From Pseudomonas marvdashtae (GTDB lineage Bacteria > Pseudomonadota > Gammaproteobacteria > Pseudomonadales > Pseudomonadaceae), in NCBI RefSeq assembly GCF_014268655.2, contig NZ_JABWQX020000001.1, forward strand, positions 2,820,001-2,884,000: a stretch of 64,000 bases of DNA, written 5' to 3'. Below the pieces are notes generated by a model that saw only the letters and a program-made list of their open reading frames with translations, was not told the origin of the DNA and searched no databases. The translations under genes were made by a program, and so were the position numbers. Shown piece by piece: positions 1,183 to 24,262 of the stretch (within the stretch, counting starts at the first letter, position 1; each line of letters starts with the position of its first letter).

Positions 1183-1196
1183 CGCCCCGCTGGGCG
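1183..1196. terminator. Short hairpin between convergent genes
   Basis: CGCCC, loop CGCT, GGGCG lies directly after the porin stop and 5 bases before the stop of the convergent permease gene. There is no T-run, so it is a weak, possibly bidirectional terminator. Confidence 0.35.
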
Positions 1197-1200
1197 ACCA

Positions 1201-1968
1201 TCATGCCTTGACCCAGCGCTGACGGCTCCAACTGCTCAATGTGTCGACGGTGAAGACCAGCACCAACATGGCCAGGATCACCGTGCTGCCTTGGGCTTCC
1301 TGGAACAGGCTGAGGCTGACATAGAGCATCTGGCCCAGGCCGCCGGCACCGACAAAACCCAATACGCTGGCCATGCGTATGTTGTTTTCCCAGCGGTACA
1401 GCGTGTAGGCCAATAGCTGCGGCATCAGGTTGGGCAGGGTGCCGTAGCAAAAAGCCCAGAGCGCGCTGCCGCCTTGCAGGCGAATGGCGTCGGCGGCTTG
1501 CGACGGGGTGTTTTCCAGCGCCTCGGCAAACAGTCGGCCGAGCACTCCGACGGTGTGCAGGGCCAGTGCCAGCGTGCCGGCATTGGGACCGAGTCCCGCG
1601 GCGAACACCATCAACGCCGCCCACACCAGTTCCGGCACCGCGCGCAACGCGTTCAGCAACAGGCGCGACGCGCTTTGCAGGGGCCAGCCAAGTCGCCCGG
1701 CGGCAGGCAGCGCCAATGCCAACCCCAACACCGCCGCGAGCAGCGTGCCAACAGCAGACATGGCGATGGTTTCCAGCGCGCCGTGGCCGACTGCCTTCAG
1801 ATAGGCCGGGCTCAGGTCGGGGCTGAGGAAGCGTTGCGCATAAGCGCCCATTTGCTTGAGGTTGGCGTTGTCAGCCAACGCCCCCAGGTCGATGCTCAGG
1901 TAGGCAAACGAGGCAACGACCGCCGCGCCAATGCCCAGCAGCATCAGCGTGTTGAGCAAGCGATTCAT
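1201..1968 (-). CDS. phnE: PhnE-type ABC transporter permease (second permease)
   Basis: 255-residue inner-membrane permease of the phosphonate-importer class. About six hydrophobic segments are visible. The EAA loop region reads LENTPSQAADAIRLQGGS, and the PhnE signature [22 protein letters not shown] follows. Start ATG at 1966-1968 is chosen because it overlaps the upstream permease stop by four bases (ATGA), typical of translational coupling; an open extension to 2145 is out-of-frame shadow. It closes the operon 4431-1201 (binding protein, ATPase, permease, permease). It pairs with the other PhnE-like permease, probably as a heterodimer. Substrate is uncertain: phosphonate, phosphite or another oxyanion. 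Confidence 0.88.
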   Translation of the reverse strand: MNRLLNTLMLLGIGAAVVASFAYLSIDLGALADNANLKQMGAYAQRFLSPDLSPAYLKAVGHGALETIAMSAVGTLLAAVLGLALALPAAGRLGWPLQSASRLLLNALRAVPELVWAALMVFAAGLGPNAGTLALALHTVGVLGRLFAEALENTPSQAADAIRLQGGSALWAFCYGTLPNLMPQLLAYTLYRWENNIRMASVLGFVGAGGLGQMLYVSLSLFQEAQGSTVILAMLVLVFTVDTLSSWSRQRWVKA

Positions 1969-5575: not shown

Positions 5576-5694
5576 ACCCGCTACGCAAATTTGCCGATGA
5601 CACTATCGGCAGCTTTTAGCCAACTGCCATCAAGCCTTCGTACTGCCTGCCTACCATGACTCTCGTCGAGCTGACAGCTCATCGAGGTTACGTC

Positions 5695-6747
5695 ATGACA
5701 AGTACACGCTCCGTAGACATGCAGATACGCGACATCCACAAGGGTTTCGGTGCCTTCAAGGCGCTGGATGGGGTGTCGCTGGATATCGCCGCGGGTGAGT
5801 TGGTGTGCTTGCTCGGGCCGTCCGGCTGCGGCAAGACCACGCTGCTGCGCTGCATCGCCGGCCTGGAGCGACAGGACCGCGGGACGATCATGATTGGCGC
5901 CCGGGATGTCTCGACCCTGGCGCCCCAGGCGCGTGACTACGGCATCCTGTTTCAATCCTATGCGCTGTTTCCCAACCTGACGGTGGAACAGAACATTGGC
6001 TACGGTTTGGCCGGTAATGGCCGCGAGACGATTCGCGGGCGGGTCAACGAAATGCTCGACCTCGTCGGGCTGTGCGGCAGCGAGAAAAAATACCCGGGGC
6101 AGCTCTCGGGCGGACAGCAGCAGCGGGTCGCCTTGGCGCGTGCCTTGGCCCCGGCGCCGTCGTTGCTGCTGCTCGACGAACCGATGTCGGCCCTGGATGC
6201 CCGGGTACGCGAACATCTGTGCAGCGAGTTGCGCCAACTGCAAAAACGCCTGGGCGTTACCACGTTGATGGTCACTCACAACCAGGACGAGGCGATGTTG
6301 ATGGCCGACCGCATCGCGGTGATCAATCAGGGTCGCGTTGAACAATTTGCCAGCGCTCAACAGATCTACCGCGCACCGGCGACTGCCTTCGTCGCCGACT
6401 TTGTCGGGCAGGGCAACTGGCTGCCCTTCGAGCGCGGGCAGGATGGCCAGGTGCGCGTCGGCGGGCACCGCCTCAACCTGCATGGTGCTGACGCGCGCCG
6501 CAGCGGACGACTCTTTTGCCGTCCGGAAGCCGTACGGATCAACCCGTCGACGCCGGAAGACAATCTCTTCGATGCACAGTTGCGTGAGCTGACCTTCCTC
6601 GGCAACCGTTGCCGCTTGAGCTTTGAGCTGGACGCGTTGCCGGGCCACATGCTGCTGGCGGAGCTGGAGCCGCACGCCATGCCGCAGCTGACCCATGCAC
6701 CGCTGAAGGTCGCGCTGCCGTCCCACAGTCTCCAGGTGTTCAGCTGA
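5695..6747 (+). CDS. AEP ABC transporter ATP-binding protein (PhnT-type)
   Basis: 350-residue ATPase of the spermidine/putrescine-iron superfamily. Walker A GPSGCGKTT, signature [15 protein letters not shown], Walker B LLLLDEPMSALDARVR and the H-loop MVTHNQDEAM are all present. A C-terminal TOBE-like region starts near residue 240. ATG 5695 is preferred over 5656 because GAGG at 5684-5687 is well spaced. It opens an operon running to 11592 (ATPase, double permease, phnX, binding protein, FAD enzyme), the usual neighbourhood of the AEP importer variant. It supplies energy for AEP uptake across the inner membrane. Confidence 0.9.
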   Translation: MTSTRSVDMQIRDIHKGFGAFKALDGVSLDIAAGELVCLLGPSGCGKTTLLRCIAGLERQDRGTIMIGARDVSTLAPQARDYGILFQSYALFPNLTVEQNIGYGLAGNGRETIRGRVNEMLDLVGLCGSEKKYPGQLSGGQQQRVALARALAPAPSLLLLDEPMSALDARVREHLCSELRQLQKRLGVTTLMVTHNQDEAMLMADRIAVINQGRVEQFASAQQIYRAPATAFVADFVGQGNWLPFERGQDGQVRVGGHRLNLHGADARRSGRLFCRPEAVRINPSTPEDNLFDAQLRELTFLGNRCRLSFELDALPGHMLLAELEPHAMPQLTHAPLKVALPSHSLQVFS

Positions 6748-6748
6748 T

Positions 6749-8464
6749 ATGCAAGGCACGATGTCCATCAAGCCGGCCGTGTTGCAGCCACGCCAAGTGC
6801 CCGGTGATTTGCCAGACCAAGTGTTCATTCGCGGCGGGCAATGGCTGCTTCTGCTGTTGCTGGTACTGGCGGTACTGCTGCCTTTGCTCGCCATGCTGTG
6901 GCGTGCGTTCAGCGGGGACGCCAGCCAGGGCGGCGGCCTGCAGGCGGCGCTGAGGTTGTTCACCAGCGGCCATTTTCATTGGCTGCTTGGCAACAGCCTG
7001 ACGGCTTCGCTGACCGTCGCGGCAATCGTGGTGCCGCTGGCCTATGCCTTCGCCTACGCCTTGCAACGCACCTGCATCGTGGCAAAGCCGTTGTGGCGGG
7101 GCATCTCGCTGCTGCCGTTACTGGCACCGTCGATGTTGCCGGGCATTGCGCTGATCTATCTGTTCGGCAACCAAGGGCTGCTGCGCGGCCTGGTTACCGA
7201 CAATATCTACGGGTTCTGGGGCATCGTCCTCGGGCAAGCGATCTACACCTTCCCCCATGCATTGATGGTGCTGATGTCGGCATTGGCGTTGTCGGACGCG
7301 CGGTTGTTCGATGCGGCTGCGAGCATGGGCGCCTCGCCATCGCGAGCCTTTCGCAGCATCACTTGGCCCGGCAGCCGCCAAGGTGTGTTCGCGGCTTTCT
7401 GCCTGGTATTCACCCTGTGCATCACCGATTTCGGCGTGCCCGTCACGGTCGGCGGTGATTACCAAGTGCTTGCCTTGGAAGCCTACAAGGCTGTCGTAGG
7501 CCAGCAGCAGTTTGGCCGAGGGGCGCTGATCGGCGTGGTTCTGCTGCTGCCGGCGTTACTCAGCTTTGCGGTGGACGCATGGCTGCGTCGTAGTCAGCGC
7601 GACACCCTGAGCGGTCGAGCGCAGGTTTATCACCCGTCGCCGTCACGGGGCAGGGACGCTGCCTTCCTGAGCGTAACGGCCCTGATCTGCTGCGCGCTGG
7701 TCGGCGTGTTCGGCATGGCGGTATACGCCTCACTCGTGCAGTTCTGGCCGTATGACCTGTCGTTGTCGCTTGAAAACTATGCCTTTTCCGAGCTGCCCGG
7801 CGGCTGGCTGGCTTATCGCAATAGCCTGTTGCTGGCGCTGTGCAGCGCCTTGTTCGGCAGCCTGCTGATCTTCACCGGCACTTACCTGATCGAGAAAACC
7901 CGACAGAGTCCGCTGACCCGAATCCTGCGCTTGCTCAGCTTCGTGCCAATGGCCGTGCCCGGCCTGGTCCTGGGCCTGGGCTACGTATTTTTCTTCAACG
8001 TGCCGGGCAATCCACTGAACAGTTTGTACGGCAGCCTGGCCCTGCTGGTTGTTTGCACCGTCGCCCACTTCTTGACGACCGCGCACATGACCGCAAGCTC
8101 GGCCCTGCGGCAGCTCGACGACGAATTCGAAGCCGCGGCGCTGGCGCTCAAAGTGCCGCTGGCTCGCCACTTCCTGCGGGTGACATTGCCCATGTGCCTG
8201 CCAGCGCTGCTCGACATCATCCGTTATCTGTTCGTGTCGGCGATGACCACCGTCTCGGCGGCGATCTTTCTCTACAGCCCTGACAGCGTCCTGGCCGCAG
8301 TGGCCGTATTGAACATGGACGACGCCGGCAATGTCGGCGGGGCCGCCGCGATGTCCACGCTGATCCTGCTGACCTCGGCCGGTGTGTCGCTGCTGCTCGC
8401 GGCACTCTCGCGCCGGCTGCTGCGCCGTTCCCAAGCCTGGCGCCAGCAGGTGCCGGGTCTTTGA
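6749..8464 (+). CDS. AEP ABC transporter permease, fused two-domain
   Basis: 571 residues with two tandem binding-protein-dependent permease domains in one chain, roughly 60-290 and 340-570. About twelve hydrophobic segments are visible. EAA-like loops are seen at [18 protein letters not shown] and [17 protein letters not shown] single fused permease replaces separate PhnU and PhnV, as in the second class of putative AEP importers and FbpB/AfuB-type iron permeases. ATG 6749 starts one base after the ATPase stop; ATG 6761 has an AAGG just upstream and is an alternative. It lies between its ATPase and phnX. Confidence 0.88.
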
Positions 8465-8481
8465 AAATCCTGGAGATAGTC

Positions 8482-9309
8482 ATGCATTACCAACCCCCTA
8501 CACACCTGCAGGCGGCCATTCTCGATTGGGCGGGCACTGTGGTGGACTTCGGTTCGTTCGCCCCGACGCGGATCTTCGTCGAAGCCTTCGCCAGCTTCGA
8601 CATCCAGATCAGCCTGGAAGAGGCGCGTGGCCCGATGGGCATGGGCAAATGGGAGCATATCCGCACCTTGTGCAATCAGCCGGCGGTAGCTGAACGTTTC
8701 CATCACCGCTTCGCACGTGCGCCAAGCGATGATGATGTGACCGCAATCTACCAACGCTTCATGCCGCTGCAGATTGCGAAAGTCGCCAACCATTCGGACC
8801 TGATCCCCGGCGCATTGGACAGCATTGCCGCGCTGCGCCAGCGCGGTCTCAAGATCGGCAGTTGTTCCGGGTATCCCAGGCAGGTGATGGACAAAGTCGT
8901 CGAACTGGCCGCGGCCAAGGGTTATCGACCCGATCATGTGGTTGCCACCGACGACGTTCCCAAGGGGCGGCCAAGCCCGGCGCAGGCGCTGGCCAACGTA
9001 ATTGCCCTGGGCCTGGACGACGTCGCGGGCTGCGTGAAGGTCGACGACACCGAACCCGGCATTCTCGAAGGCCGCAGGGCAGGGATGTGGACCGTGGCGC
9101 TGCGCTTTTCCGGCAATTTCCTCGGCCTCGACTGGGAGCAGTTCCAAGCCCTCTCGGCGCAACAGTTGGCGACCGAGCGTAGCCGCATCGACGGCTTGTT
9201 TGCCGCCTGCCGCCCGCATTATCTCATCGACACCATTGCCGAATTGCCCGCTGTGATTGACCAGATCAACGCGCAGCTGGCCCGCGGTGTATTGCCGTCG
9301 CATACCTGA
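8482..9309 (+). CDS. phnX: Phosphonoacetaldehyde hydrolase
   Basis: 275-residue HAD-superfamily enzyme that hydrolyses phosphonoacetaldehyde to acetaldehyde and phosphate. Motif I is [11 protein letters not shown] with the nucleophile Asp and the PhnX-type Ala/Gly. The Schiff-base lysine segment reads [15 protein letters not shown]. Motif II surrounds [11 protein letters not shown], and motif IV includes [12 protein letters not shown] 8482 is chosen over an open TTG at 8461 because GGAGA at 8472-8476 precedes it and the length then fits the family. It normally acts after PhnW transaminates AEP, but no phnW is present in this window. Confidence 0.96.
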
Positions 9310-9339
9310 AAGCCTCACTGACTGACACGGAGCCGTACC

Positions 9340-10359
9340 ATGTCCAAACGCATCGCCTTGGCCGCTGGCTTGCTGGCCGCCTGTACCTTCCAGGCCCAGG
9401 CCAATACTGAACTGACCGTATACACGGCCCTCGAGGTCGAGCAGCTCAAAGCCTACAAGCAAGCCTTCGAGCAGCAGAACCCGGAGATCGAGATCAAATG
9501 GGTGCGCGACTCCACCGGCATCGTCACCGCCAAGCTGCTGGCAGAGAAGGATCGCCCGCAAGCCGACGTGGTCTGGGGACTCGCCGGCTCCAGCCTGGCG
9601 ATTCTCAAGCAACAAGGTTTGCTCGATACCTACAGCCCGGCGAATCTTAACCAGATCGCCGCCAACTATCGGGATGCCGATACACCGCCGGCTTGGGTCG
9701 GCATGGACGTTTGGGCTGCCGCGATCTGTTTCAATACGGTGGAAGCGCAGAAGCAGGGGCTGCCCAAACCCACGCGCTGGGAAGACCTGGCGAACCCGGT
9801 GTACCAAGGCAAGATCGTCATGCCCAACCCGGCCTCGTCGGGCACCGGTTACCTGGATGTCAGCGCCTGGTTGCAAACCTTCGGCGAGGCCAAGGGCTGG
9901 GCCTACATGGACAAGTTGCACGCCAATATCGGCCAGTACACGCATTCCGGCTCCAAGCCCTGCAAGCTGGCGGCCGCCGGTGAGTTCCCTATCGGCATTT
10001 CGTTTGAATACCCGGCCATCCAGCTCAAGCGCAAAGGCGCGCCCCTGGACATCGTGCTGCCCGCTGAAGGCCTGGGCTGGGAAATCGAAGCCACCGCCAT
10101 CATCAAAGGCACCCGACACTTGGAAGCTGCCAGGAAACTCGCTGATTTCTCGGCTAGCCGCGAGGCCATGGAACTGTACAAAGCCAACTTCGCCGTCCTG
10201 GCACAACCGGGCATCGCCGAGCGTTTGCCGGAGCTGCCAGCGGACTACGAACAACGGCTGATACGCAACGATTTCGCCTGGGCATCGGAGAACCGCGACA
10301 GAGTGCTTGCCGAGTGGCGCAAGCGTTACGACGGCAAGTCAGAGCCCGTCGCCAAATAG
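9340..10359 (+). CDS. AEP ABC transporter substrate-binding protein (PhnS2-type)
   Basis: 339 residues: a Sec signal peptide ending QAQA|NT, then a class II periplasmic binding fold with ELTVYTALEVEQLKAYKQAF, DVVWGLAGSSLAIL and PNPASSGTGYLDVSAWL. These are typical of iron/AEP-type binding proteins (AfuA/PotD relatives). It follows phnX by 30 bases with GGAG upstream and matches the fused permease and ATPase earlier in the operon. It should capture AEP in the periplasm. Annotation as AEP-specific rests on context with phnX and the FAD enzyme rather than on a known ligand motif. Confidence 0.88.
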   Translation: MSKRIALAAGLLAACTFQAQANTELTVYTALEVEQLKAYKQAFEQQNPEIEIKWVRDSTGIVTAKLLAEKDRPQADVVWGLAGSSLAILKQQGLLDTYSPANLNQIAANYRDADTPPAWVGMDVWAAAICFNTVEAQKQGLPKPTRWEDLANPVYQGKIVMPNPASSGTGYLDVSAWLQTFGEAKGWAYMDKLHANIGQYTHSGSKPCKLAAAGEFPIGISFEYPAIQLKRKGAPLDIVLPAEGLGWEIEATAIIKGTRHLEAARKLADFSASREAMELYKANFAVLAQPGIAERLPELPADYEQRLIRNDFAWASENRDRVLAEWRKRYDGKSEPVAK

Positions 10360-10434
10360 CTTTCTGCAATGCCTGTCGCAGGCCCGGCGGTGTCGAGCGG
10401 GCCTCGTAATATCGATCGTTTTTAAGGAGTTTTC

Positions 10435-11592
10435 ATGTCTGAGCACGACTGCGATCTGCTGATCGTCGGCGCCGGCATTCTCGGGTTGGCCCACGCTTGG
10501 GCGGGTGCCAAGCGCGGCCTCAAGGTCAAGGTATTCGAGCGCAGCCATACGCCGCTCGGTGCCTCGATTCGCAACTTCGGCCAGGCTTTGGTCAGCGGCC
10601 AGGCGCCGGGCATCATGCTGGACCTGGCACGGGAGGCGAACGGTTTATGGAAGACCCTGGGGCAGGGGGCCGGGCTGCATATGCACCAACAAGGCTCGCT
10701 GTTGTTCGCCCGCACTGAAGTCGAAGAAGCGTTGCTCGAGGCCTTCGTGAACGGGCGGGGCGCGACGTTGGGTTATCGCACCCAACTGCTGCGTGGCGAG
10801 GCGCTGGCGGCACTCTATGACGGCCGTTTCGCCCATCATCGCGCGGCGCTGCTAGGCCTGGACGACCAGCAGTTGTATTCCCGCGAGGCGCTTACGCAGA
10901 TTGTCGATTACCTGGCCCGGGCCTTGGGTGTTGAATTCCACTTCTCGACGCTGGTGCGCGATGTTGAAAGCAACTGTGCGTTAACCAGTACCGGACGCTT
11001 TACCGCGCGGCACATTGTCGTGTGCTCAGGCCATGACTACCAGACGCTGCTGGCCGAGCAAATCGCCGCGCTAAAACCGCAGGTGTGCGGACTGCAAATG
11101 CTCCGCGTCCGCCCACGTCAGCCTTTGGCGTTGCAACATGCGTTGCTGACCGGACTGAGCTGCGTGCACTACGGCGCCTTCGCCGATCTGCCTGAAGCGC
11201 AGGCCATCCGCGCGCAGATCCGCACGAACCAACCGGAGTTGGAGACGCATGGCATCCATTTGCTCATCAGTCCCACACCGCACGGCGATCTGATCATTGG
11301 CGACTCCCATGTCTACGGCCGCGACATTTCGCCGTTCAACACCGAGCAGGTGGATCGGATTCTGATCGATCTTGCGCAAGATACCCTGGGCGGCGAAATC
11401 GAAGTACTGGAACGATGGCAAGGCGTGTATGGCGCGCGCGGACCTGGGCCGTTCAGCGTGCTCGCCGCCGCGCCGGGGGTTACCGCTGTGCTGATGCACA
11501 CCGGGTTGGGGATGAGCGTGGGCCTCGCGCTTGGCGAGCGCACTATCGCGGACTTGCTGGGTGAAGCCCGCCCGCACAGTTCGGCGGCTTGA
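10435..11592 (+). CDS. FAD-dependent amine oxidoreductase, AEP-cluster type (TIGR03364-like)
   Basis: 385-residue DAO-family flavoenzyme. The N-terminal dinucleotide motif is LLIVGAGILGLAHAWAGAKRG. SIRNFGQALVSGQAPG and a C-terminal LMHTGLGMSVGLALGERTIADL complete the fold. Members of this group sit recurrently in AEP clusters, and some related enzymes have been reported to oxidise AEP or N-methyl-AEP to phosphonoacetaldehyde (recalled, not checked). As no aminotransferase is present, this enzyme is the likely source of the PhnX substrate. It is last in the operon, 75 bases after the binding protein, with AAGGAG upstream. Confidence 0.87.
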   Translation: MSEHDCDLLIVGAGILGLAHAWAGAKRGLKVKVFERSHTPLGASIRNFGQALVSGQAPGIMLDLAREANGLWKTLGQGAGLHMHQQGSLLFARTEVEEALLEAFVNGRGATLGYRTQLLRGEALAALYDGRFAHHRAALLGLDDQQLYSREALTQIVDYLARALGVEFHFSTLVRDVESNCALTSTGRFTARHIVVCSGHDYQTLLAEQIAALKPQVCGLQMLRVRPRQPLALQHALLTGLSCVHYGAFADLPEAQAIRAQIRTNQPELETHGIHLLISPTPHGDLIIGDSHVYGRDISPFNTEQVDRILIDLAQDTLGGEIEVLERWQGVYGARGPGPFSVLAAAPGVTAVLMHTGLGMSVGLALGERTIADLLGEARPHSSAA

Positions 11593-11609
11593 TCTCAAGT
11601 GCGCTACAA

Positions 11610-11632
11610 GGGGGCCTCGTACAGCGGCCCCC
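11610..11632. terminator. Bidirectional terminator-like hairpin
   Basis: GGGGGCC (11610-11616) pairs with GGCCCCC (11626-11632) around a 9-base loop, between the convergent FAD-enzyme and ppk2 genes. There is no T-run. Confidence 0.5.
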
Positions 11633-11645
11633 AACGTGGCTCACT

Positions 11646-12563
11646 TCAATACACCTGGGGCACGATAAGTTCAGGTGGAGTGGGGCTTCGGGAATAGTCT
11701 TCTTGCCTGACGCGCTGCGGCAGTTCGATTACCGGCAGCTCAACCTCTTCATAGGCCATCTGCCCGAGAAGATGATTGATGCAGTTGAGCCTGGCTTTCT
11801 TTTTATCATCGGCCTGTACTACCCACCAAGGTGCTTCGGCAATGTGGGTGCGTTCAAGCATGATTTCCTTGGCCTTGGTATAGGCTTCCCACCGCCGGCG
11901 CGACTCCAAGTCCATGGGGCTGAGTTTCCACTGCTTGAGCGGATCATGGATGCGACTCAGAAAGCGCAGGTGCTGTTCCTGGTCGGAAATGGAGAACCAG
12001 TATTTGATCAATTGGATGCCGGAGCGGACGAGCATGCGTTCGAACTCCGGTACGGTACGGAAGAACTCTTCGTACTGATCTTCGTTGCAAAACCCCATCA
12101 CTTGTTCCACACCCGCACGGTTGTACCAGCTACGGTCGAACAGTACGATTTCGCCCGCCGCCGGCAGATGCGAGACGTAGCGCTGGAAGTACCATTGGGT
12201 ACGTTCGCGGTCGTTGGGGGCGGGCAGGGCGGCGACCCGGCAGACCCGAGGATTCAGGCGCTGGGTGATTCGCTTGATGACGCCGCCTTTGCCGGCGGCA
12301 TCCCGTCCTTCGAACAGAATGACGACTTTGTGGCCTGTCTTGACCACCCAGCTTTGCAGCTTGACCAGTTCGCCTTGCAGGCGGAACAGTTCGCTGAAAT
12401 ATAGCCTGCGAGCATCCTTCTCTGTGCCTTCCGTTACGTGCTCGTCGAAGAGCGCATTCAGGTCATGCCCGTCTTCGGATAATTCCAGTTCCAGCTCTTC
12501 ATCACTGTGATCAAGCAGCTCACGGTGGATGCGCTGTATCAAGGTGTCTGGTGCAGAGGACAT
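11646..12563 (-). CDS. ppk2: Polyphosphate kinase 2
   Basis: 305 residues; transfers phosphate between polyphosphate and nucleotides in the cytoplasm. Walker A GRDAAGKGGVIKRI, Walker B FDRSWYNRAGVEQVMGFC, and the lid region SRIHDPLKQWKLSPMDLESR are all intact, giving a one-domain PPK2. The N-terminal 60 residues are acidic (EELELELSEDGHD). It is monocistronic and divergent from pstS. A Pho-box-like 11-bp direct repeat lies 46-63 bases upstream, so it may be induced by phosphate limitation. PPK2 class (ADP- or AMP-preferring) is not decided here. Confidence 0.95.
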   Translation of the reverse strand: MSSAPDTLIQRIHRELLDHSDEELELELSEDGHDLNALFDEHVTEGTEKDARRLYFSELFRLQGELVKLQSWVVKTGHKVVILFEGRDAAGKGGVIKRITQRLNPRVCRVAALPAPNDRERTQWYFQRYVSHLPAAGEIVLFDRSWYNRAGVEQVMGFCNEDQYEEFFRTVPEFERMLVRSGIQLIKYWFSISDQEQHLRFLSRIHDPLKQWKLSPMDLESRRRWEAYTKAKEIMLERTHIAEAPWWVVQADDKKKARLNCINHLLGQMAYEEVELPVIELPQRVRQEDYSRSPTPPELIVPQVY

Positions 12564-12608
12564 AGAAGGGGCTCGCGGAGTGAGGATGGCAAAGTGTTAG
12601 GCGTAATT

Positions 12609-12626
12609 TGTTACGAGCCCATTACA
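12609..12626 (-). promoter_or_regulatory. Candidate Pho box for ppk2
   Basis: On the minus strand TGTAATGGGCT is followed by CGTAACA, giving two GTAA-type half-sites 11 bp apart as in PhoB-binding direct repeats. It lies 46-63 bases upstream of the ppk2 start. Confidence 0.4.
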
Positions 12627-12679
12627 TCGAACTGCTTTGCTGCGGTTACAGGAGGATAACCGTGCTGCTTGCCATTGAG

Positions 12680-12697
12680 CCTTCATGAAAACGTAAC
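12680..12697 (+). promoter_or_regulatory. Candidate Pho box for pstS
   Basis: CCTTCATGAAAA followed by CGTAAC has 11-bp-spaced half-sites resembling the Pho box (CTGTCAT-type then CGTAACA-type). It sits 47-65 bases upstream of the pstS ATG, a suitable activator position. Confidence 0.45.
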
Positions 12698-12744
12698 AAA
12701 ACTGCTGCAGAGTTCGGGAGCCCGTAATCACAAGGTGTCCCTTA

Positions 12745-13776
12745 ATGAAAAGTTTGATGAAGTCTGCTGCGCTCGCCATTGCGGTTTCTCTTTGTGCCAC
12801 CTCGGCGTCCTTCGCAGCAGAGAATGTCCGTCTGACAGGTTCCGGGGCGAGTTTCCCTGCACCGATCTACCTCACCTGGTTCAAGGATTTCAGCAAGAAG
12901 TCCGACAGTGTCACCGTTGATTACCAATCCAAGGGCAGTGGCGCGGGCGTACAGGATTTCCTGAACAAAACCGTCGACTTCGCCGCCAGTGACTCGGCAA
13001 TGAAAGATGAAGATATCGCCAAGGTCGCCGAAGGCGTGCAGTTGCTGCCGATGACCGCTGGGGAAATCGTGCTGGCCTATAACCTGCCGGGCAATCCCAA
13101 GGGTCTCAAGCTGCCACGCGACGTGTACTCGAACATTTTCCTGGGCAAGATCACGCGCTGGAACGATCCACAGATTGTGGCTGCCAACCCGGACCTGAAA
13201 CTGTCCGATACACCGATCACCGTCGTTGTACGTGCTGACTCCAGCGGTACGACCGCCGTGTTCACCAAACACCTGGCGACCATCAATCCAGAGTTCAAGC
13301 AGGCGCTGGGCGAGGGCAACACCGTCAACTGGCCGGCCAGTGACAAGTTCATCAAGTCGCCGAAGAACGATGGCGTCACCGCAACTGTGCGCCAGACCCC
13401 GGGCGCGATTGGCTACATCGAATACGGCTTCGCCAAGCTCGCCAAGGTTGACTTTGCCCAACTGCAGAACAAGGCCGGCAAGTACGTCGTGCCAAACGCC
13501 GAAAGCGGTGCCGAGGCCCTGGCTGCGGTGAAGATGCCGGAAAACCTGGTGGCCTGGCTGCCGGATCCGGACGGTGCCAAGTCGTACCCGATCACGTCCT
13601 ACACCTGGATGATCTTCCGCAAGGATAACGGCAATCCGGCCAAGGCCAAGGCCATGCGTGAAATGGTCGAATACAGCCTGACCGAAGGCCAGAAGATTGC
13701 CGATTCGATGGGTTATATCCCCTTGCCACAATCGGTTGTCGAGCAGGTTCGCAAAGCGTCCGCCAACATCCAGTAA
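12745..13776 (+). CDS. pstS: Phosphate ABC transporter substrate-binding protein PstS
   Basis: 343 residues. A signal peptide (MKSLMKSAALAIAVSLCA, then TSASFA|AEN) precedes the PstS fold. LTGSGASFPAPIYLTWF and YQSKGSGAGVQDF carry the phosphate loop, and RADSSGTTAVFTKHL and QTPGAIGYIEYG are further hallmarks. It binds free phosphate in the periplasm and delivers it to PstCA. It is the first gene of pstSCAB, preceded by a Pho-box candidate. The 72-base gap to pstC is long for this operon and may hold a processing or attenuation point, which would allow PstS to exceed the membrane parts. Confidence 0.96.
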   Translation: MKSLMKSAALAIAVSLCATSASFAAENVRLTGSGASFPAPIYLTWFKDFSKKSDSVTVDYQSKGSGAGVQDFLNKTVDFAASDSAMKDEDIAKVAEGVQLLPMTAGEIVLAYNLPGNPKGLKLPRDVYSNIFLGKITRWNDPQIVAANPDLKLSDTPITVVVRADSSGTTAVFTKHLATINPEFKQALGEGNTVNWPASDKFIKSPKNDGVTATVRQTPGAIGYIEYGFAKLAKVDFAQLQNKAGKYVVPNAESGAEALAAVKMPENLVAWLPDPDGAKSYPITSYTWMIFRKDNGNPAKAKAMREMVEYSLTEGQKIADSMGYIPLPQSVVEQVRKASANIQ

Positions 13777-13848
13777 TGCCGTGAGGTCTCTCTCGGTGTT
13801 GCTCTTAGCATGCCGGGGGAGTTATCCCCCTTGTTCCGGACTTAGCCA

Positions 13849-14814
13849 ATGAACAAACCTTTTGTCGTACCGGTTAATCCGGACTCCGCCTGCCAACCAC
13901 CCTCGACGAAGGACTTCCTGGTTGATCGCACGTTTCGTGCGCTTGCGCGCATCGGGGTGGTCCTGATTCTGGCGCTGGTGTTTGCACTGGTATTCGAGGT
14001 GGGACGCAAGGCGCTTCCTGGCATGGAGAAACATGGTTTCGACGTGCTCTTGGGGAGTGTCTGGGACGTTAACCAAGGTAAGTACGGCATCCTGCCGGCT
14101 ATCTGGGGCACGCTCTACAGCGCCCTGATCGCATTGTTGATCGCAGGCTTTTTCGGCGTCAGCATGGCGATCTTCCTGACCCAGGACTTCCTGCCGCCCA
14201 AGCTTGCCGCGATCTTCCGCACCATTGTCGAATTGCTCGCGGCCATTCCAAGCGTTGTCTATGGCCTGTGGGGGATCTACGTGGTGATCCCGGCGATTCG
14301 TCCGCTGACGACCTGGTTGAACAGCGAGCTCGGCTGGGTGCCTTTTTTCGGTACATCCCTGAGCGGGCCAGGGCTGCTCCCTGCGGCGCTGGTGCTTGCC
14401 ATCATGATTCTGCCGACCATTGCCGCCGTTTCCCAGGATGCTCTCACGGCCGTACCGATGAAAACCAAGCAGGCCGCCTATGGCATGGGGACTACCCATT
14501 GGGAAGCGATTCTCAAGGTGATGGTGCCGTCCGCCGCCACCGGCATTTTCGGCTCTCTGGTTCTCGGCTTGGGGCGCGCGTTGGGTGAAACCATGGCGCT
14601 GGCCATGCTGGTAGGCAATGCGAACAACATCTCCCTCTCGCTGTTCGCGCCGGCCAACACACTGGCGGCCTTGCTCGCGCTGAACTTCCCGGAAGCCGGG
14701 CCGAACGAGATCGAGGTGTTGATGTATGCCGCACTGGTGCTGATGTTAATCACCCTGATCGTGAACGTCTTCGGCTCCTTGATCATGATGTATGCCCAAC
14801 GGGGAAATAGGTGA
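13849..14814 (+). CDS. pstC: Phosphate ABC transporter permease PstC
   Basis: 321-residue permease with about six membrane helices, beginning RIGVVLILALVFALVFEVG. Family signatures include IPSVVYGLWGIYVVIPAIRP, GTTHWEAILKVMVPSAATGI and GLGRALGETMAL (EAA loop). It pairs with PstA to form the phosphate channel. The stop TGA 14812-14814 shares its last base with the pstA ATG, indicating translational coupling. Confidence 0.95.
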   Translation: MNKPFVVPVNPDSACQPPSTKDFLVDRTFRALARIGVVLILALVFALVFEVGRKALPGMEKHGFDVLLGSVWDVNQGKYGILPAIWGTLYSALIALLIAGFFGVSMAIFLTQDFLPPKLAAIFRTIVELLAAIPSVVYGLWGIYVVIPAIRPLTTWLNSELGWVPFFGTSLSGPGLLPAALVLAIMILPTIAAVSQDALTAVPMKTKQAAYGMGTTHWEAILKVMVPSAATGIFGSLVLGLGRALGETMALAMLVGNANNISLSLFAPANTLAALLALNFPEAGPNEIEVLMYAALVLMLITLIVNVFGSLIMMYAQRGNR

Positions 14815-15725
14815 TGACTGATCTCTCTGCTGCAACAGACTTGACCGCTCCTGCAGGCGCGATGCCCAGCCTGCAGCGCAAGTTCGAGGGCCGCGCCCTG
14901 CGCAGCCTGATCCTGACCACGCTGGTCTGGACGGGTGCGCTACTGGCCAGCGTGCCGCTGATTTCCGTGCTCTACATGCTGATCACCCGCGGTGGCGCTC
15001 GCCTGAACCTGGAAGTCTTTACCGAACTGCCGCCAACAGGCTTCGAGATGGGCGGGGGCTTCGGCAACGCCATGGCGGGTACCTTCGTGATGGTCGGTAT
15101 CGCAGCGGCAATCGCGGTGCCGGTCGGCATCATGGCGGCGATCTTCCTGGCTGAACTGGGGCCGGACAGCAAACTGGCGAACGCCTCGCGTTTTGCCGCC
15201 AAGATGCTTACGGGCCTGCCTTCGATCCTGGCCGGGGTTTTCGCTTATGCCTTGGTGGTGATGACCACCGGTACTTATTCGGCACCGGCGGGTGGCGTAG
15301 CGCTGGCGGTACTGATGCTACCGATCGTCGTGCTGACGGCGGAAGAATCGATGCGCATGGTGCCCAAGATCATGAAGGATGCCGCCTACGGCATGGGCTG
15401 CACCCGCTCACAGGTGATCTGGAAAATCGTCTTGCCTACCGGCATGCCGGCAATCCTGACCGGCGTCATGCTGGCCGTGGCACGTGCCGCGGGCGAGACG
15501 GCACCGTTGTTGTTCACCGCGCTGTTCAGCAACTACTGGATCTATCACCAAGGCAGTCTTGAGGTGATGAACCCGACTGCATCGCTTGCAGTGTTGATCT
15601 ACAACTTCTCCGGCATGCCTTTCGATAACCAGCTCGAGCTCGCATGGGCGGCCTCGTTGGTGCTGGTGATGATTGTGCTGTTCGTGAACATCATCAGCCG
15701 CATTTTCGGCAAGCCTAAGTATTAA
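14814..15725 (+). CDS. pstA: Phosphate ABC transporter permease PstA
   Basis: 303-residue permease partner of PstC with about six helices. Family motifs seen are FLAELGPDSKLANASRFAAK, LTGLPSILAGVFAYALVVM, DAAYGMGCTRSQVIWKIVL and ARAAGETAPLLFTALF. ATG 14814 is chosen over GTG 14811 because it overlaps the pstC stop as TGATG. It is followed after 18 bases by pstB. Confidence 0.95.
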   Translation: MTDLSAATDLTAPAGAMPSLQRKFEGRALRSLILTTLVWTGALLASVPLISVLYMLITRGGARLNLEVFTELPPTGFEMGGGFGNAMAGTFVMVGIAAAIAVPVGIMAAIFLAELGPDSKLANASRFAAKMLTGLPSILAGVFAYALVVMTTGTYSAPAGGVALAVLMLPIVVLTAEESMRMVPKIMKDAAYGMGCTRSQVIWKIVLPTGMPAILTGVMLAVARAAGETAPLLFTALFSNYWIYHQGSLEVMNPTASLAVLIYNFSGMPFDNQLELAWAASLVLVMIVLFVNIISRIFGKPKY

Positions 15726-15743
15726 GAACGGGAGCATCTGATT

Positions 15744-16562
15744 TTGAACGTATCCACTGCGCAAATAGCCGCTCCGTTTGTCACCCAGGCGCCTGTAGTC
15801 ATGGACTGCAAACTGGACAAGATTTTCTACGGGAACTTCATGGCGGTACGTGACAGCCATGTGCCGATCGAGAAGAACAAGATCACCGGATTCATCGGTC
15901 CTTCCGGCTGTGGCAAGAGCACTGTGCTGCGCAGCCTCAACCGGATGAATGACCTGGTGAAGGGGTTTCGTTTCGAAGGGCACGTACATTTCCTCGGACA
16001 GGACGTCTACGGCAAGGGCGTCGATCCCGTGGTCGTGCGCCGCTACATCGGCATGGTGTTCCAGCAGCCGAACCCGTTTTCGATGAGCATCTTCGACAAC
16101 GTCGCGTTTGGCCTGCGCCTCAATCGCTACAAGGGCGATATCGGTGATCGGGTCAAGCACGCGCTGCAAGGCGCCGCGCTGTGGGATGAGGTCAAGGACA
16201 AGCTCAAGGTCAGCGGCCTGTCGCTCTCCGGTGGCCAGCAACAACGTCTGTGCATTGCCCGCGCCATCGCCACCGAGCCGGAAGTATTGCTGCTGGATGA
16301 GCCGTGTTCGGCGCTCGATCCGATCGCTACCCGGCGGGTCGAGGAGTTGATGGTCGAGTTGAAGAAGGACTACACCATCGCGCTGGTGACCCACAACATG
16401 CAGCAAGCCATCCGTGTCGCTGACACCACGGCGTTTTTCTCCGTGGATATTTCCCAGGGCACGCGCACCGGCTATCTGGTCGAGATGGGCCCGACGACGC
16501 AGATTTTCGATAACCCGCGTGAACAGATGACCGGGGATTACATCAGCGGTAAGTTCAGCTAA
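15744..16562 (+). CDS. pstB: Phosphate ABC transporter ATP-binding protein PstB
   Basis: 272-residue ATPase. Walker [22 protein letters not shown]-loop [10 protein letters not shown], signature [16 protein letters not shown], Walker [14 protein letters not shown] and H-loop LVTHNMQQA are all intact. It probably starts at TTG 15744, with GGGAG about ten bases upstream; ATG 15801 is a poorer alternative because no Shine-Dalgarno precedes it. No phoU follows, unlike the standard pstSCAB-phoU arrangement, so this may be a second Pst system of the genome. The next gene encodes a Fic-like protein. Confidence 0.94.
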
Positions 16563-16597
16563 GCAACACGCCCGGTCAAGGCCGTATACCTGCAGAA

Positions 16598-16613
16598 GCC
16601 AAATGGATTTGGC
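16598..16613 (+). other. Intercistronic hairpin after pstB
   Basis: GCCAAA, loop TGGA, TTTGGC lies 36 bases after the pstB stop and 43 before the Fic-like start. With no T-run it could be an mRNA-stabilising or partial-termination structure separating pst from the two downstream genes. Confidence 0.35.
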
Positions 16614-16655
16614 GGGCATCCGGTAGACATTTACCCGCGTTACCAAGGAGTACTA

Positions 16656-17354
16656 ATGCCCGCGACGCATCGGCTTGATTTGCCAGCAATTGAACGCGCA
16701 CTGCGTGAAGTACAGAGCCGCTTCGCCGAACTTAGCCGGCATTTCACGGAGCCCCGAGACCCCCTGACCGACGAAGTGCTGCACAATGTGCTTGAAGGTT
16801 ACGCATTGGTTGATGAGTATGTTGCCCGCGGCGTTGACCTGTTCGATCTTCAGCAACTGAACCTGATGCTGGAGATCAATGCCACGGTACTCTGTGGCCG
16901 CGACCCGGCACGCCGTTTGGAATATGCCCAGCACCTGGCAGCGACCGAGGAGCATTTCTTCAACAACGTTGAAGGAGGCATCAAGGATTTGTTCAATTGG
17001 TACTGCGCGTATCGCAGCGAATCAGTCTGGAAACGTGCGGCTGGCGTCTATGTCCGCATCCTCAGCAAGCCGCAGTTGTTCATTGAGGGTAACAACCGCA
17101 GTGGGTCGCTGATCGTCAGCTATTTGCTCATGCGCGCTGGATTGCCTCCTTTCGTGCTGACGCTGGAGAATGCCCAGGGCTACTTCAACCCGTCCTCGGT
17201 CATACGCAACTCGGCCAAGCATGGCGTCAAGGCATTGTACGAATTGCCCAAGATCAAGAAAAAATACGCAGCTTTTTTAGAAGAACAGGCACCTGATCCG
17301 ATGAAGTTTTTTCTCAAAGGCAAGTCTTTGCCCCTTTATCAAGGTGGTCATTGA
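16656..17354 (+). CDS. Degenerate Fic-fold protein linked to pst
   Basis: 232 residues, start ATG behind AAGGAG. Residues about 100-175 follow the Fic core: a helix (IKDLFNWYCAYR), WKRAAGVYVRILS, then QLFIEGNNRSGSLIVSYLLM and RAGLPPFVLT. The usual Fic motif HPFx(D/E)GNGRxxR is degenerate: the catalytic His position reads Q, the Gly after GN is Asn, and the last Arg is Ser. Fic enzymes transfer AMP, phosphate or phosphocholine to proteins; this one may be inactive, altered, or only nucleotide-binding. Its stop overlaps the next gene's ATG. No inhibitory helix motif was recognised. Function unknown. Confidence 0.72.
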   Translation: MPATHRLDLPAIERALREVQSRFAELSRHFTEPRDPLTDEVLHNVLEGYALVDEYVARGVDLFDLQQLNLMLEINATVLCGRDPARRLEYAQHLAATEEHFFNNVEGGIKDLFNWYCAYRSESVWKRAAGVYVRILSKPQLFIEGNNRSGSLIVSYLLMRAGLPPFVLTLENAQGYFNPSSVIRNSAKHGVKALYELPKIKKKYAAFLEEQAPDPMKFFLKGKSLPLYQGGH

Positions 17355-18007
17355 TGAGCGGATCTCCAGCGCTTGCCAAGTGCAAAACTTTCAGCAGCCG
17401 GGTAGGGCAGGCCATTCGCTGCGCTCTGCCTACGCAGTTGTTCAAGCGTCAGCGCGTACGAATCTCGTTTGATATTGACGACACACTCGCGTGCCAACTT
17501 CACCACTGCGCAGCCGAACAAAGCAGACTGCCAGCCTGTGTTCATCGTTGGTTGGGTGAGCCGTTGCGCGAAGGCACACGTTCCCTGATCCGAGAGTTGC
17601 GCCGTCAGGATTGCAGCATCTGGGTCTATACGTCGTCTGGTCGCACACCGTCCTATATCAGGCGATGGTTGCTGCTATACGGTATCCGCGTCGATGGCGT
17701 GGTCAACAGCGTGCTGCACAATCGCGCACTGACGGTGCATGGGCTGGCGAATTCGCCTTCAAAGTATCCGCCGGCGTTCGATATCGACTTGCACGTCGAT
17801 GATTCCGAAGGCGTGCAGATTGAAGGTAACGACCATGGGTTTCGCGTTGTCGTCGTGCATCCGGAGGATGACCGCTGGGCACAGAAAGTCCTGGATGCGG
17901 TCGCCATGGTCCAGGCGCAGCTCGCTTGGCAGCAAATGTGCAGACATGAAGAGCCGGTCTATCAACGAGCACAAGCTTTCCTTGAAGAAGCAGTCAGTTC
18001 TCAATGA
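17354..18007 (+). CDS. HAD-superfamily hydrolase-like protein, partner of Fic-like gene
   Basis: 217 residues. Motif I FDIDDTLAC (nucleophile and acid Asp) is near residues 38-46. Motif II is YTSSGRTPSYIRRWL. A lysine-containing NSPSKYPPAFDIDLH segment comes before motif IV VDDSEGV. The core is thus complete, and metal-dependent phosphatase or phosphotransferase activity is plausible. ATG 17354 overlaps the Fic-like stop as TGATG, so the pair is co-translated. A HAD phosphatase coupled to a Fic-like protein could reverse or oppose a phosphoryl or nucleotidyl modification, but that is inference. It is the last gene before dif. Confidence 0.75.
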   Translation: MSGSPALAKCKTFSSRVGQAIRCALPTQLFKRQRVRISFDIDDTLACQLHHCAAEQSRLPACVHRWLGEPLREGTRSLIRELRRQDCSIWVYTSSGRTPSYIRRWLLLYGIRVDGVVNSVLHNRALTVHGLANSPSKYPPAFDIDLHVDDSEGVQIEGNDHGFRVVVVHPEDDRWAQKVLDAVAMVQAQLAWQQMCRHEEPVYQRAQAFLEEAVSSQ

Positions 18008-18038
18008 GGACATGGGGAGCCACAAGAGCTGATACGGC

Positions 18039-18066
18039 GGTTCGCATAATGTATATTATGTTAAAC
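18039..18066 (+). other. dif: dif site (XerC/XerD chromosome dimer resolution)
   Basis: 28 bp: XerC-type arm GGTTCGCATAA, central TGTATA, XerD-type arm TTATGTTAAAC. From memory E. coli dif has arms GGTGCGCATAA and TTATGTTAAAT around the same central hexamer, so the site differs at only two positions. It lies in a 205-base gap between the HAD gene and an MFS gene. This marks the replication terminus. Confidence 0.95.
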
Positions 18067-18212
18067 AAGATGTTTGCGACGGATGTTTATGATTCGATTG
18101 TCTACTCGCCGGATCTGGATCCGCTCCCCTGCAACTAATCCTAAAATGCACGAGTCTCTAACTTCACCGAGGTTGAGCCATTTCGCCGAGCCTCACATCG
18201 AAAAGACTACCT

Positions 18213-19469
18213 GTGAGCACGACCACCTACCTGGAACGCCGCAACAACCTGTCGCTGGACAGCCTCAACTTCTTTCTCGCCGACGTGCGCGACGGCCTCG
18301 GGCCGTATCTGGCGATCTACCTGCTGGCGGTGCATCACTGGGACCCAGCGAGCATCGGCGTGGTGATGACGATCGCTGGCGTCGCCGCCCTGATCACACA
18401 GACGCCAGCGGGAGCGTTGGTTGACAGCAGCCGTGCCAAGCGCGGGTTGATTGTGATTGCCGCGCTGATCGTGACCGTCAGTTGCCTGGTGTTGCCCTTT
18501 GTCTCTTCATTCAGCCTGGTGGCGCTCACGCAGGCCTTGAGTGCGGTGGCGGCATCGATTTTTGCCCCGGCCATTTCGGCGATTACCCTGGGCATCACCG
18601 GTCCTCGCGCTTTCACGCGGCGAACCGGGCGCAACGAAACTTTCAACCATGCCGGCAACGCCTGCGCGGCCTTGCTGGCCGGTTTGTTTGCTTATTTGTT
18701 CGGCCCGGTGGCGGTGTTTTACCTGATGGCGTTCATGGCCTTGGCAAGCATGTGCGCCGTGGCGTTCGTCTCAGCTGAAGCCATCGACCATGATCTGGCT
18801 CGCGGTCTCGAACCTCGTGGCGCCAATCACCCTCAGCCCTCCGGGTTTGCCGTGTTGCTCAGCCACCGGCCGTTGCTGATGTTTGCGGTTTGCTGCGCGC
18901 TGTTCCACCTGGCAAATGCAGCCATGCTGCCGCTGGTGAGCCAAAAGCTTGCCCACGCCAATCTGCACATGGCCACCCCGCTCACCTCCGCCTGCATCGT
19001 CGCGGCGCAGCTGGTCATGGTGCCGATGGCGCTGCTGGCTGGCGCCAAAGCCGATCAATGGGGCCGCAAACCGCTGTTGTTGGCGGGTTTTCTGATTCTG
19101 CCGTTGCGCGGTGTGCTCTATACCCTGTCGGATGATCCGTACTGGCTGGTCGCGGTACAACTGCTCGACGGCGTCGGCGCCGGCCTTTTCGGCGCGTTGT
19201 TCCCGGTCATGATCAAGGACCTCACGCTTGGTTCCGGCCACTTTAATATCAGCCTCGGTGCACTCACCACGGTGTTCGGTCTGGGCGCGGCGTTGAGCAA
19301 CGGTCTGGCGGGATTTGTAGTTGAAGCGGCTGGCTACGATGCAGCATTCCTGACACTTGCTGGCGTCGCCGGGACGGCGTTTTTACTGCTATGGTTTGGG
19401 GTTCCGGAAACCATGCAACGTTCTGAAGGCGTCAAAACTGATCGAATCGAGATCAGCTCTGGCGCCTGA
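18213..19469 (+). CDS. MFS transporter
   Basis: 418 residues with about twelve hydrophobic segments, consistent with a complete major facilitator. The loop after helix 2 reads GALVDSSRAKRG and the mid-protein counterpart is AGAKADQWGRKPLLLAGF, a typical MFS signature. GTG 18213 is used; only a weak AAAAGA-like sequence precedes it. It is the first gene right of dif and stands alone. The substrate cannot be inferred from the neighbours. Confidence 0.85.
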   Translation: MSTTTYLERRNNLSLDSLNFFLADVRDGLGPYLAIYLLAVHHWDPASIGVVMTIAGVAALITQTPAGALVDSSRAKRGLIVIAALIVTVSCLVLPFVSSFSLVALTQALSAVAASIFAPAISAITLGITGPRAFTRRTGRNETFNHAGNACAALLAGLFAYLFGPVAVFYLMAFMALASMCAVAFVSAEAIDHDLARGLEPRGANHPQPSGFAVLLSHRPLLMFAVCCALFHLANAAMLPLVSQKLAHANLHMATPLTSACIVAAQLVMVPMALLAGAKADQWGRKPLLLAGFLILPLRGVLYTLSDDPYWLVAVQLLDGVGAGLFGALFPVMIKDLTLGSGHFNISLGALTTVFGLGAALSNGLAGFVVEAAGYDAAFLTLAGVAGTAFLLLWFGVPETMQRSEGVKTDRIEISSGA

Positions 19470-21610: not shown

Positions 21611-22066
21611 TTATCCGTTCAAAGATTTTTCCATGACGATTGTGCGCTCTGCGCCGTGAAACGCGTCGCGGACTTTGCGGAAACCCAGGGAGTAATAAAA
21701 CGTCTCTGCCGTGATCGAGGAAGGGACTCGCAACCATTCAACGCCGTTTTCCGAGGCCGCCGACTCGATCGTGGCCATCAACTGACGACCAATGCCCCTG
21801 CCCTGATAGGACGGGTCAACAAATACGCTTCGGACGGTGTCTTTATCAAGACTTCCCGTTGCGACGAGCTGACCATCGAAGCTCGCGACATACACCTCGC
21901 GCAGGCTTAGAAAGTCCAGGATTGCCGACGGTGAAAAGCTTCGCTGCACCTGCTCGATGATGTCTGATGAATAGTCTTGGGCATTGGACTCGCGCAGTGC
22001 CGCTGCCACGACCAGGCTGATTGCTACGGCATCCGTACTGATTGCCTTTCGAATAACGCAGTCCAT
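21611..22066 (-). CDS. GNAT-family N-acetyltransferase
   Basis: 151 residues. The acetyl-CoA binding motif A reads VRSVFVDPSYQGRGIGRQLM (Q/RxxGxG/A). The preceding strand EVYVASFDGQLVATGSL and a C-terminal ETFYYSLGFRKVRD complete a GNAT fold. ATG 22066 with AAGGA upstream is preferred to the open extension to 22264. It likely acetylates a small molecule or amino-terminal amine. It diverges from an aldo/keto reductase gene, and no functional link is evident. Confidence 0.85.
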   Translation of the reverse strand: MDCVIRKAISTDAVAISLVVAAALRESNAQDYSSDIIEQVQRSFSPSAILDFLSLREVYVASFDGQLVATGSLDKDTVRSVFVDPSYQGRGIGRQLMATIESAASENGVEWLRVPSSITAETFYYSLGFRKVRDAFHGAERTIVMEKSLNG

Positions 22067-23422: not shown

Positions 23423-23515
23423 TGACTGCCCCTGCGGTGCAGCCGTGACCAGGTACCGATACAGGGCCCACCGCTTTAGCTGGAACTCTTGCTATCAGCC
23501 GGAAGGAGAAACGCA

Positions 23516-24262
23516 ATGAGCCATCCTGATGCGCACGTCAGTGCTCTCGAGCAATTTACCTGGCAATCGACACTCGACAGCAATCTGGACAGAAAAGGCC
23601 TGTTGCTCCGGCTGTTCGCCGAACAGCGATTCATGGCCGCGCAGGTGCGCGCCTGCAAACTTGATCACAAGGATTACCTGCTTTCGCTGATTGATCCGGC
23701 GTCGACGACGAACGACGACACTCGGCACTCATCAAGCGTCGATAGCCATCGAATGCGGAGCGTCATCACCGAAGCGGCAAGGAAAGCCCATTGGGGCACG
23801 CTCCCAAGACATGGTCGGGCGCAAGGCATCGCCGCCCACTATGACGCGCAGACCTGCATGGCGGTCGTACTCGATATCGAGGTGAGCGACGAAGGTCGCT
23901 TGATCATTCATGACGCGGTCGTGGTTGCGGACTTGGGTTTCGTGGCAAATCCTGGTCGCGTGCGCTCGCAGCTCGAAGGCGCTTGCCTGATGGGGATAGC
24001 GTTTGTGACGTCCAGTGATTTTGATCCGACCACTAAAGACGCCCGGGCTAAACCTGCCTATCGCACCCGCTGGCCACTCCTCTCTTGGCTGCCAGGACAG
24101 ATCGCGGTGCACCTGATCAATCCCACCGGGGATTGCGAAGCCGGCCAGCCCAGCCAGACCAGCTACGCACCTGTTGCCCGGGCCCTGTGCAATGCAATTT
24201 TGAAGGCTACGGGTAACGAGTCGGTCCGGATCCAGTCACTGGAAAGATCGAGCGCAAGTTAA
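23516..24262 (+). CDS. Orphan protein with a molybdo-hydroxylase C-terminal fragment
   Basis: 248 residues, ATG behind AAGGAG. The first 75 residues are unlike anything I recognise and polar (LEQFTWQSTLDSNLDRKGLL). Residues about 85-230 resemble the end of aldehyde or isoquinoline oxidoreductase large subunits: ITEAARKAHWG, GRAQGIAAHYDAQTCMAVVL, VVVADLGFVANPGRVRSQLE and GACLMGIAF. The rest of that 700-plus-residue family, including most molybdopterin contacts, is absent. It has its own promoter block (23359-23422) and Shine-Dalgarno, so it may be expressed rather than being debris. Function unknown; a decayed fusion is the alternative. Confidence 0.6.
   Translation: MSHPDAHVSALEQFTWQSTLDSNLDRKGLLLRLFAEQRFMAAQVRACKLDHKDYLLSLIDPASTTNDDTRHSSSVDSHRMRSVITEAARKAHWGTLPRHGRAQGIAAHYDAQTCMAVVLDIEVSDEGRLIIHDAVVVADLGFVANPGRVRSQLEGACLMGIAFVTSSDFDPTTKDARAKPAYRTRWPLLSWLPGQIAVHLINPTGDCEAGQPSQTSYAPVARALCNAILKATGNESVRIQSLERSSAS

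What the first reader, a model, noticed from the sequence alone, without database searches (positions are those of the whole stretch)
18039..18066. Chromosomal dif site fixes the replication terminus inside the window
Seen directly: arms GGTTCGCATAA and TTATGTTAAAC around TGTATA, in an intergenic gap with no integrase. Established knowledge: XerC/XerD resolve chromosome dimers at dif, with nearly invariant arms in gamma-proteobacteria. Only two bases differ from the E. coli site as I remember it. So this window is the terminus, not an ordinary accessory region.
Basis: partly seen in the sequence, partly recalled or inferred. Interest (0 to 1): 0.85.

Follow-up and report, generated by a model that had tools for sequence, protein, structure and literature searches.

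The report
Ordinary Pseudomonas chromosomal dif site
This is the single spot where a Pseudomonas chromosome is cut and rejoined to separate two fused copies before the cell divides; it is genuine and well placed, but of a kind already well known.

Summary
Confirmed, and ordinary. The 28-mer at 18039-18066 is the only dif-like site found in the 5.9 Mb draft genome (25-base core, up to 3 mismatches; reversed control 0). It differs from the published E. coli dif at two bases. The strongest evidence is the FtsK signposts (KOPS, GGGNAGGG): within 400 kb on each side they run 46+/2- left and 2+/42- right, flipping between -639 and +3757 bases of the site. XerC, XerD and the FtsK gamma domain are present over curated cut-offs. 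Of 199 genus genomes, 190 hold the site. dnaA lies 0.473-0.518 of a chromosome away in the 11 relatives measured, and about 0.50-0.52 by inference here. One correction: dif marks where segregation ends and dimers are resolved; it need not fix where replication stops. In P. aeruginosa replication ends opposite oriC, wherever dif is (PMC6199493). Here the cumulative GC-skew peak is 56 kb left of dif on a flat plateau; in three relatives it lies 30 bp, 40 bp and 25 kb from dif. The flanking genes are not generally at dif in relatives.

The parts
18039..18066 (+). dif site: putative XerC arm GGTTCGCATAA (18039-18049), centre TGTATA (18050-18055), putative XerD arm TTATGTTAAAC (18056-18066)
   Evidence: two differences from the E. 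coli dif printed in PMC3025954. Assignment of arms to XerC and XerD is by analogy with E. coli (recalled)
1432..1439 (+). KOPS (GGGNAGGG), outermost of 8 on the + strand left of dif in the window; the others start at 3308, 6406, 7648, 9077, 10660, 12222 and 17400; none on the - strand
   Evidence: offsets from dif -16607 to -639
17400..17407 (+). KOPS nearest to dif on the left, pointing towards dif
   Evidence: offset -639; letters seen
21796..21803 (-). KOPS nearest to dif on the right, pointing back towards dif; 8 further ones start at 23126, 31946, 40450, 43212, 43342, 48584, 57976 and 62469; none on the + strand right of dif in the window
   Evidence: offsets +3757 to +44430

Best explanation
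It is the single chromosomal dif site of a Pseudomonas genome. XerC and XerD bind the two 11-base arms and exchange strands at the ends of the 6-base centre; two dif copies in a dimeric chromosome are thereby resolved into two monomers. KOPS octamers on both arms point towards the site, so that septum-bound FtsK pumps DNA towards dif and its gamma domain switches on XerD. Shown here: the site, its uniqueness, the KOPS convergence, and genes for the three proteins. Inferred here: the position about half a genome from dnaA (through relatives, as this genome is in 18 contigs). Inferred from what is established for E. coli and P. aeruginosa: binding, strand exchange and dimer resolution.
For: One match in the whole genome, reversed-pattern control 0. 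KOPS 46+/2- left and 2+/42- right over 400 kb each side, flip between -639 and +3757 of the site; 88 of 92 in the expected direction, binomial P about 1e-21. XerC 354.3 bits (cut-off 335.15), XerD 390.3 (329.6), FtsK_gamma 95 (30.6), all in this genome. 190 of 199 genus genomes (this one included) hold the site with up to 3 mismatches on the 25-base core: 189 once, one (G197) twice. dnaA-to-dif distance 0.473-0.518 of the contig in the 11 relatives measured. In three relatives the KOPS flip also brackets dif.
Against: The cumulative GC-skew maximum is 56 kb left of the site (8409 against 8302 at dif). A two-level step model puts the change 56-74 kb left and disfavours dif itself; a block bootstrap about dif gives an offset that large in 0.3% or 1.2% of 5000 draws (400- or 200-kb half-widths). 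The distance from oriC is inferred: the start of contig C1 lies 91 to 215 kb from dnaA in the 7 relatives where I could work it out. Nine of 199 genus genomes had no match at 3 mismatches; a looser pattern found one in 5 of these 9, but the reversed control also matched in 3 of 9.
Confidence: 0.97

Rival explanations
1. A dif-like attachment site left by, or belonging to, a mobile element that uses XerCD, not the host's own dif.
For: Of the 17 window proteins searched, none of those on the left of dif was found within about 1.5 kb of dif in 30 relatives, and the HAD-like gene has a patchy spread (52 of 199 genus genomes), so the neighbourhood has been reshuffled. A relative, G197, has a second dif-like site on a 135-kb contig.
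Against: It is the only such site in the genome, KOPS converge on it, the same site occurs once in 189 of 199 genus genomes, no second copy with up to 3 mismatches is in the window and no inverted repeat or dif-like direct repeat lies in 17500-18700. A more diverged half-site further off was not looked for.
Confidence: 0.01
2. dif is real, but replication in this genome ends mostly elsewhere, opposite oriC; that point is inferred to lie a few tens of kb left of dif, near where the GC skew peaks.
For: P. aeruginosa replication ends opposite oriC, not at dif (PMC6199493). Using the C1-start-to-dnaA distance of three relatives (149-170 kb in G125, G098, G034), the point opposite oriC is 37-58 kb left of dif; the GC-skew maximum is at -56 kb.
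Against: Using all 7 relatives where the distance could be worked out (91-215 kb) the point lies anywhere from about 105 kb left to 22 kb right of dif. In three relatives the GC skew turns 30 bp, 40 bp and 25 kb from dif, not at the antipode 107-154 kb away, so skew is no guide to the antipode there and the agreement here may be coincidence. The estimate also assumes that all 18 contigs are chromosomal, that no bases are missing and that the origin region is syntenic.
Confidence: 0.4
3. A chance match.
For: None.
Against: 0 of 100 shuffles; 1 match in 5.9 Mb with 0 control matches; the KOPS flip at the same place.
Confidence: 0.001

Closest known systems
E. coli chromosomal dif (sequence read in PMC3025954, passage)
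   Same: 26 of 28 bases, including the whole 6-base centre and all of the XerD-side arm but its last base
   Different: T for G at position 4 and C for T at position 28; neighbouring genes were not compared with E. coli
Pseudomonas dif sites, including P. aeruginosa PAO1-UW (PMC6199493, abstract and passages)
   Same: KOPS GGGNAGGG on both arms pointing to dif; dif near the GC-skew turn; same 25-base core with up to 3 mismatches in 190 of 199 genus genomes
   Different: Within 400 kb either side KOPS polarity is 88 of 92; the paper's counts for PAO1-UW are for whole arms (153/34 and 271/57), so this is no direct comparison. The GC-skew peak is further from dif (56 kb) than the 13 kb average quoted there.

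Membership tests
chromosomal dif site (XerCD/FtsK) | 28 bases, two 11-base arms around a 6-base centre, close to the dif consensus | tested here: met
   26 of 28 as in E. coli
chromosomal dif site (XerCD/FtsK) | one copy per chromosome | tested here: met
   1 match in 5,899,198 bases (18 contigs) with up to 3 mismatches
chromosomal dif site (XerCD/FtsK) | KOPS converge on the site from both arms | tested here: met
   46+/2- left, 2+/42- right, flip between -639 and +3757
chromosomal dif site (XerCD/FtsK) | near the GC-skew turn | tested here: met
   maximum 56 kb to the left, just under 1% of the genome, flat plateau; within the 0-1.39% (one sigma) quoted in PMC3025954 but far more than the 13 kb average in PMC6199493; the bootstrap says that the offset is not noise
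chromosomal dif site (XerCD/FtsK) | about opposite oriC/dnaA | tested here: met
   0.473-0.518 in the 11 relatives measured; for this draft genome only inferred, about 0.50-0.52 (with contig lengths)
chromosomal dif site (XerCD/FtsK) | XerC, XerD and FtsK gamma domain encoded in the genome | tested here: met
   each over the curated cut-off
chromosomal dif site (XerCD/FtsK) | recombination by XerCD, dependent on FtsK; dimer resolution in cells | not testable with these tools
   needs an experiment
replication terminus fixed by the site | forks meet at the site | not testable with these tools
   needs marker-frequency data; in P. aeruginosa the published answer is no (PMC6199493)
XerCD-using mobile-element attachment site | an element flanked by two dif-like copies | tested here: not met
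   a single copy at 3 mismatches in the genome; repeats searched only in 17500-18700, so a strongly diverged partner is not excluded

The most novel reading that the evidence does not exclude
In this genome two marks of the terminus have come apart: KOPS still flip within 4.4 kb around dif (24 of 24 correctly oriented within 60 kb either side), while the GC-skew turn lies about 56 kb to the left, perhaps close to the point opposite oriC. If real, a small shift of dif or of its left flank was followed by selection on KOPS but not yet by mutation bias, which would allow the two processes to be dated apart.
Probability: 0.1. Interest if true: 0.35.

Novelty: new member of a known kind. Interest (0 to 1): 0.15.

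Why it matters
It places the window at the segregation terminus of a Pseudomonas chromosome and explains the strand-polarised GGGNAGGG octamers in it. It adds no new mechanism. The useful correction is that dif marks where segregation and dimer resolution end, not necessarily where replication forks meet.

Tried and rejected
Mobile-element origin: rejected on uniqueness, absence of a second copy in the window, absence of flanking repeats in 17500-18700, and KOPS convergence.

A conserved dif neighbourhood: of 30 relatives (30 of the 190 with a site; flanks of 1.5 kb, L085 shorter on one side), one (L089) shares one of the 17 window proteins that I searched (aldo-keto-reductase-like); matches under 40% of the protein's length were dropped, so a long protein cut by the end of a flank would be missed. 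The window shares no homologous flank of 150 bp or more with any of the 30; among the 30 themselves one group of 7 and three pairs share flanks, and 17 stand alone. In 59 loci holding the HAD-like gene (flanks about 1.5 kb for L091-L110, up to 4 kb for L111-L149) a dif pattern was found only in this genome's own locus L091. Against this: in G105 the HAD-like gene lies 8.7 kb from dif, outside those flanks.

That the GC-skew turn tracks the antipode of oriC: suggested by this genome, not borne out in the three relatives G125, G165 and G015. A fourth relative (G098) could not be fetched.

In one search the table of 28-mers is of mixed strand (16 of 30 loci are printed as the reverse complement), so I draw no per-position conservation from it. 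The dif column was likewise forward-strand only; its protein search covered both strands.

dnaA-to-dif fractions were worked out by hand, from the best dnaA match, for 11 of the 34 relatives whose dnaA I located: G078, G194, G197, G165, G015, G192, G190, G185, G125, G017, G139, those whose exact contig length and dif place were in hand; the other 23 were not computed. The distance of the C1 start from dnaA was worked out by hand for 7 of the 12 relatives: G190 91 kb, G015 115 kb, G165 149 kb, G125 149 kb, G034 169 kb, G098 170 kb, G078 215 kb; for the other 5 the exact contig length was not in hand.

Full report
Observation. In the whole genome (5,899,198 bases, 18 contigs; the window is C1:2820001-2884000) a pattern for its 25-base core, one position left free, finds one place with up to 3 mismatches, and the reversed control none. 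The E. coli dif printed in PMC3025954 (passage seen) differs at positions 4 and 28 only. The site lies between an ORF ending at 18007 and an MFS-transporter ORF starting at 18213, and no listed ORF of 80 aa or more covers it. No match to the XerC or XerD models lies in the window.

KOPS. FtsK-orienting GGGNAGGG octamers were counted over 400 kb on each side (tiles). To the left 46 are on the + strand and 2 on the -, to the right 2 on the + and 42 on the -; the best switch point lies between -639 and +3757 bases of the site. Inside the window it is 8+/0- left and 0+/9- right; within 60 kb either side all 24 point to dif. KOPS are also denser close to dif: 15 within 25 kb either side against 5.75 expected from the 800-kb mean (Poisson P 0.0009; the radius was chosen after seeing the data).

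GC skew. Of the 35 C1 tiles of 20 kb (15 sparse, 20 dense), 18 of 20 left of dif have positive skew and 14 of 15 right of it negative skew; the exceptions are two weakly negative tiles at C1:2778001 and 2798001 and one weakly positive tile at 2898001. Over the 800 kb around dif the cumulative skew is greatest at C1:2781616, 56 kb left of dif, on a plateau (8409 against 8302 at dif). A two-level step model puts the change 56-74 kb left of dif and disfavours dif itself, and a block bootstrap gives so large an offset in 0.3% or 1.2% of draws. So the offset is probably real, though under 1% of the genome.

Distance from the origin. dnaA is on contig C5, so the distance can only be inferred. In 7 relatives where it could be worked out, the DNA matching the start of C1 lies 91-215 kb from dnaA; in G125, G098 and G034 (86-90% identity there) it is 149, 170 and 169 kb. 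If this holds here, dif is 2.93-3.05 Mb from oriC on that arm, 0.50-0.52 of the genome (0.51 with the last three). This assumes a syntenic origin region and only chromosomal contigs. In the 11 relatives measured the dnaA-dif distance is 0.473-0.518 of the contig.

Machinery. XerC (C1:65096, 354.3 bits against a cut-off of 335.15), XerD (C2:521828, 390.3 against 329.6) and the FtsK gamma domain (C1:2017583, 95 against 30.6) are all encoded.

Relatives. Of 199 genus genomes (this one included, drawn evenly from a larger group) 190 hold the site: 189 once and one, G197, twice. Of the other nine, a looser pattern finds one exact match (G057) and four weaker ones, with reversed-control matches in three of the nine, so the weaker ones are uncertain. 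That the genus is Pseudomonas is inferred from the named relatives of the neighbouring protein: 29 of 39 records are titled Pseudomonas, 1 Pantoea and 9 Bacteroidota. The flanks of dif are not generally conserved: see Tried and rejected.

Does dif fix the replication terminus? PMC6199493 (abstract and passages) reports that in P. aeruginosa PAO1-UW segregation ends at dif but replication ends opposite oriC, and that GC skew switches near dif, on average 13 kb away over the chromosomes examined there. PMC3025954 (passages) concludes that replication ends near but not at dif. I tested the skew part in three relatives whose dif is 107-154 kb from the antipode: the cumulative skew over 400 kb peaks 30 bp (G165), 40 bp (G125) and 25 kb (G015) from dif, and the KOPS flip brackets dif in all three, loosely in G015 (-32.6 to +3.2 kb). 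So in these relatives skew follows dif. In the present genome the peak at -56 kb falls near the antipode as inferred from the three relatives above (-37 to -58 kb), but with all seven the antipode may lie anywhere from about -105 to +22 kb. I take the agreement as coincidence or as a local disturbance of the left flank.

Verdict. A genuine, ordinary chromosomal dif; the window is the segregation terminus.

Noticed in passing
16656-17354 and 17351-18007 (+): Two overlapping ORFs directly left of dif with no Pfam match at E 0.001 and no NCBIfam match at E 1; at looser limits the first resembles Fic (PF02661, E 0.035, under the cut-off) and the second a HAD hydrolase (PF00702, E 0.13, under the cut-off). 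Relatives of the second are in 52 of 199 genus genomes (this one included, two of them weak or partial) and, at 35-46% identity, in nine Bacteroidota records; perhaps a two-gene unit with patchy spread.
   Followed up: partly
G197 contig C2:94802-94826 (locus L162): A second dif-like site, one mismatch in the centre, on a 135-kb contig; the fetched 20 kb have 52% GC, one KOPS on each strand, and a 451-aa ORF nearby that looks like a tyrosine recombinase by eye only.
   Followed up: partly
23489-24262 (+): A 257-aa ORF whose C-terminal half matches only the end of large molybdopterin oxidoreductase models (TIGR03194 positions 608-732 of 746, E 8e-6, far below its cut-off); perhaps a remnant of such a gene.
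   Followed up: no
C1:2778001-2838038 (window 1-18038 is its right end): GC skew near zero over about 60 kb left of dif while KOPS keep strict polarity.
   Followed up: partly
11646-16562: A PPK2-type polyphosphate kinase (-) beside a phosphate-transport-like set of a binding protein, two permeases and an ATPase (+), ending 1.5 kb from dif (reading it as pstSCAB is mine, from order and families).
   Followed up: no
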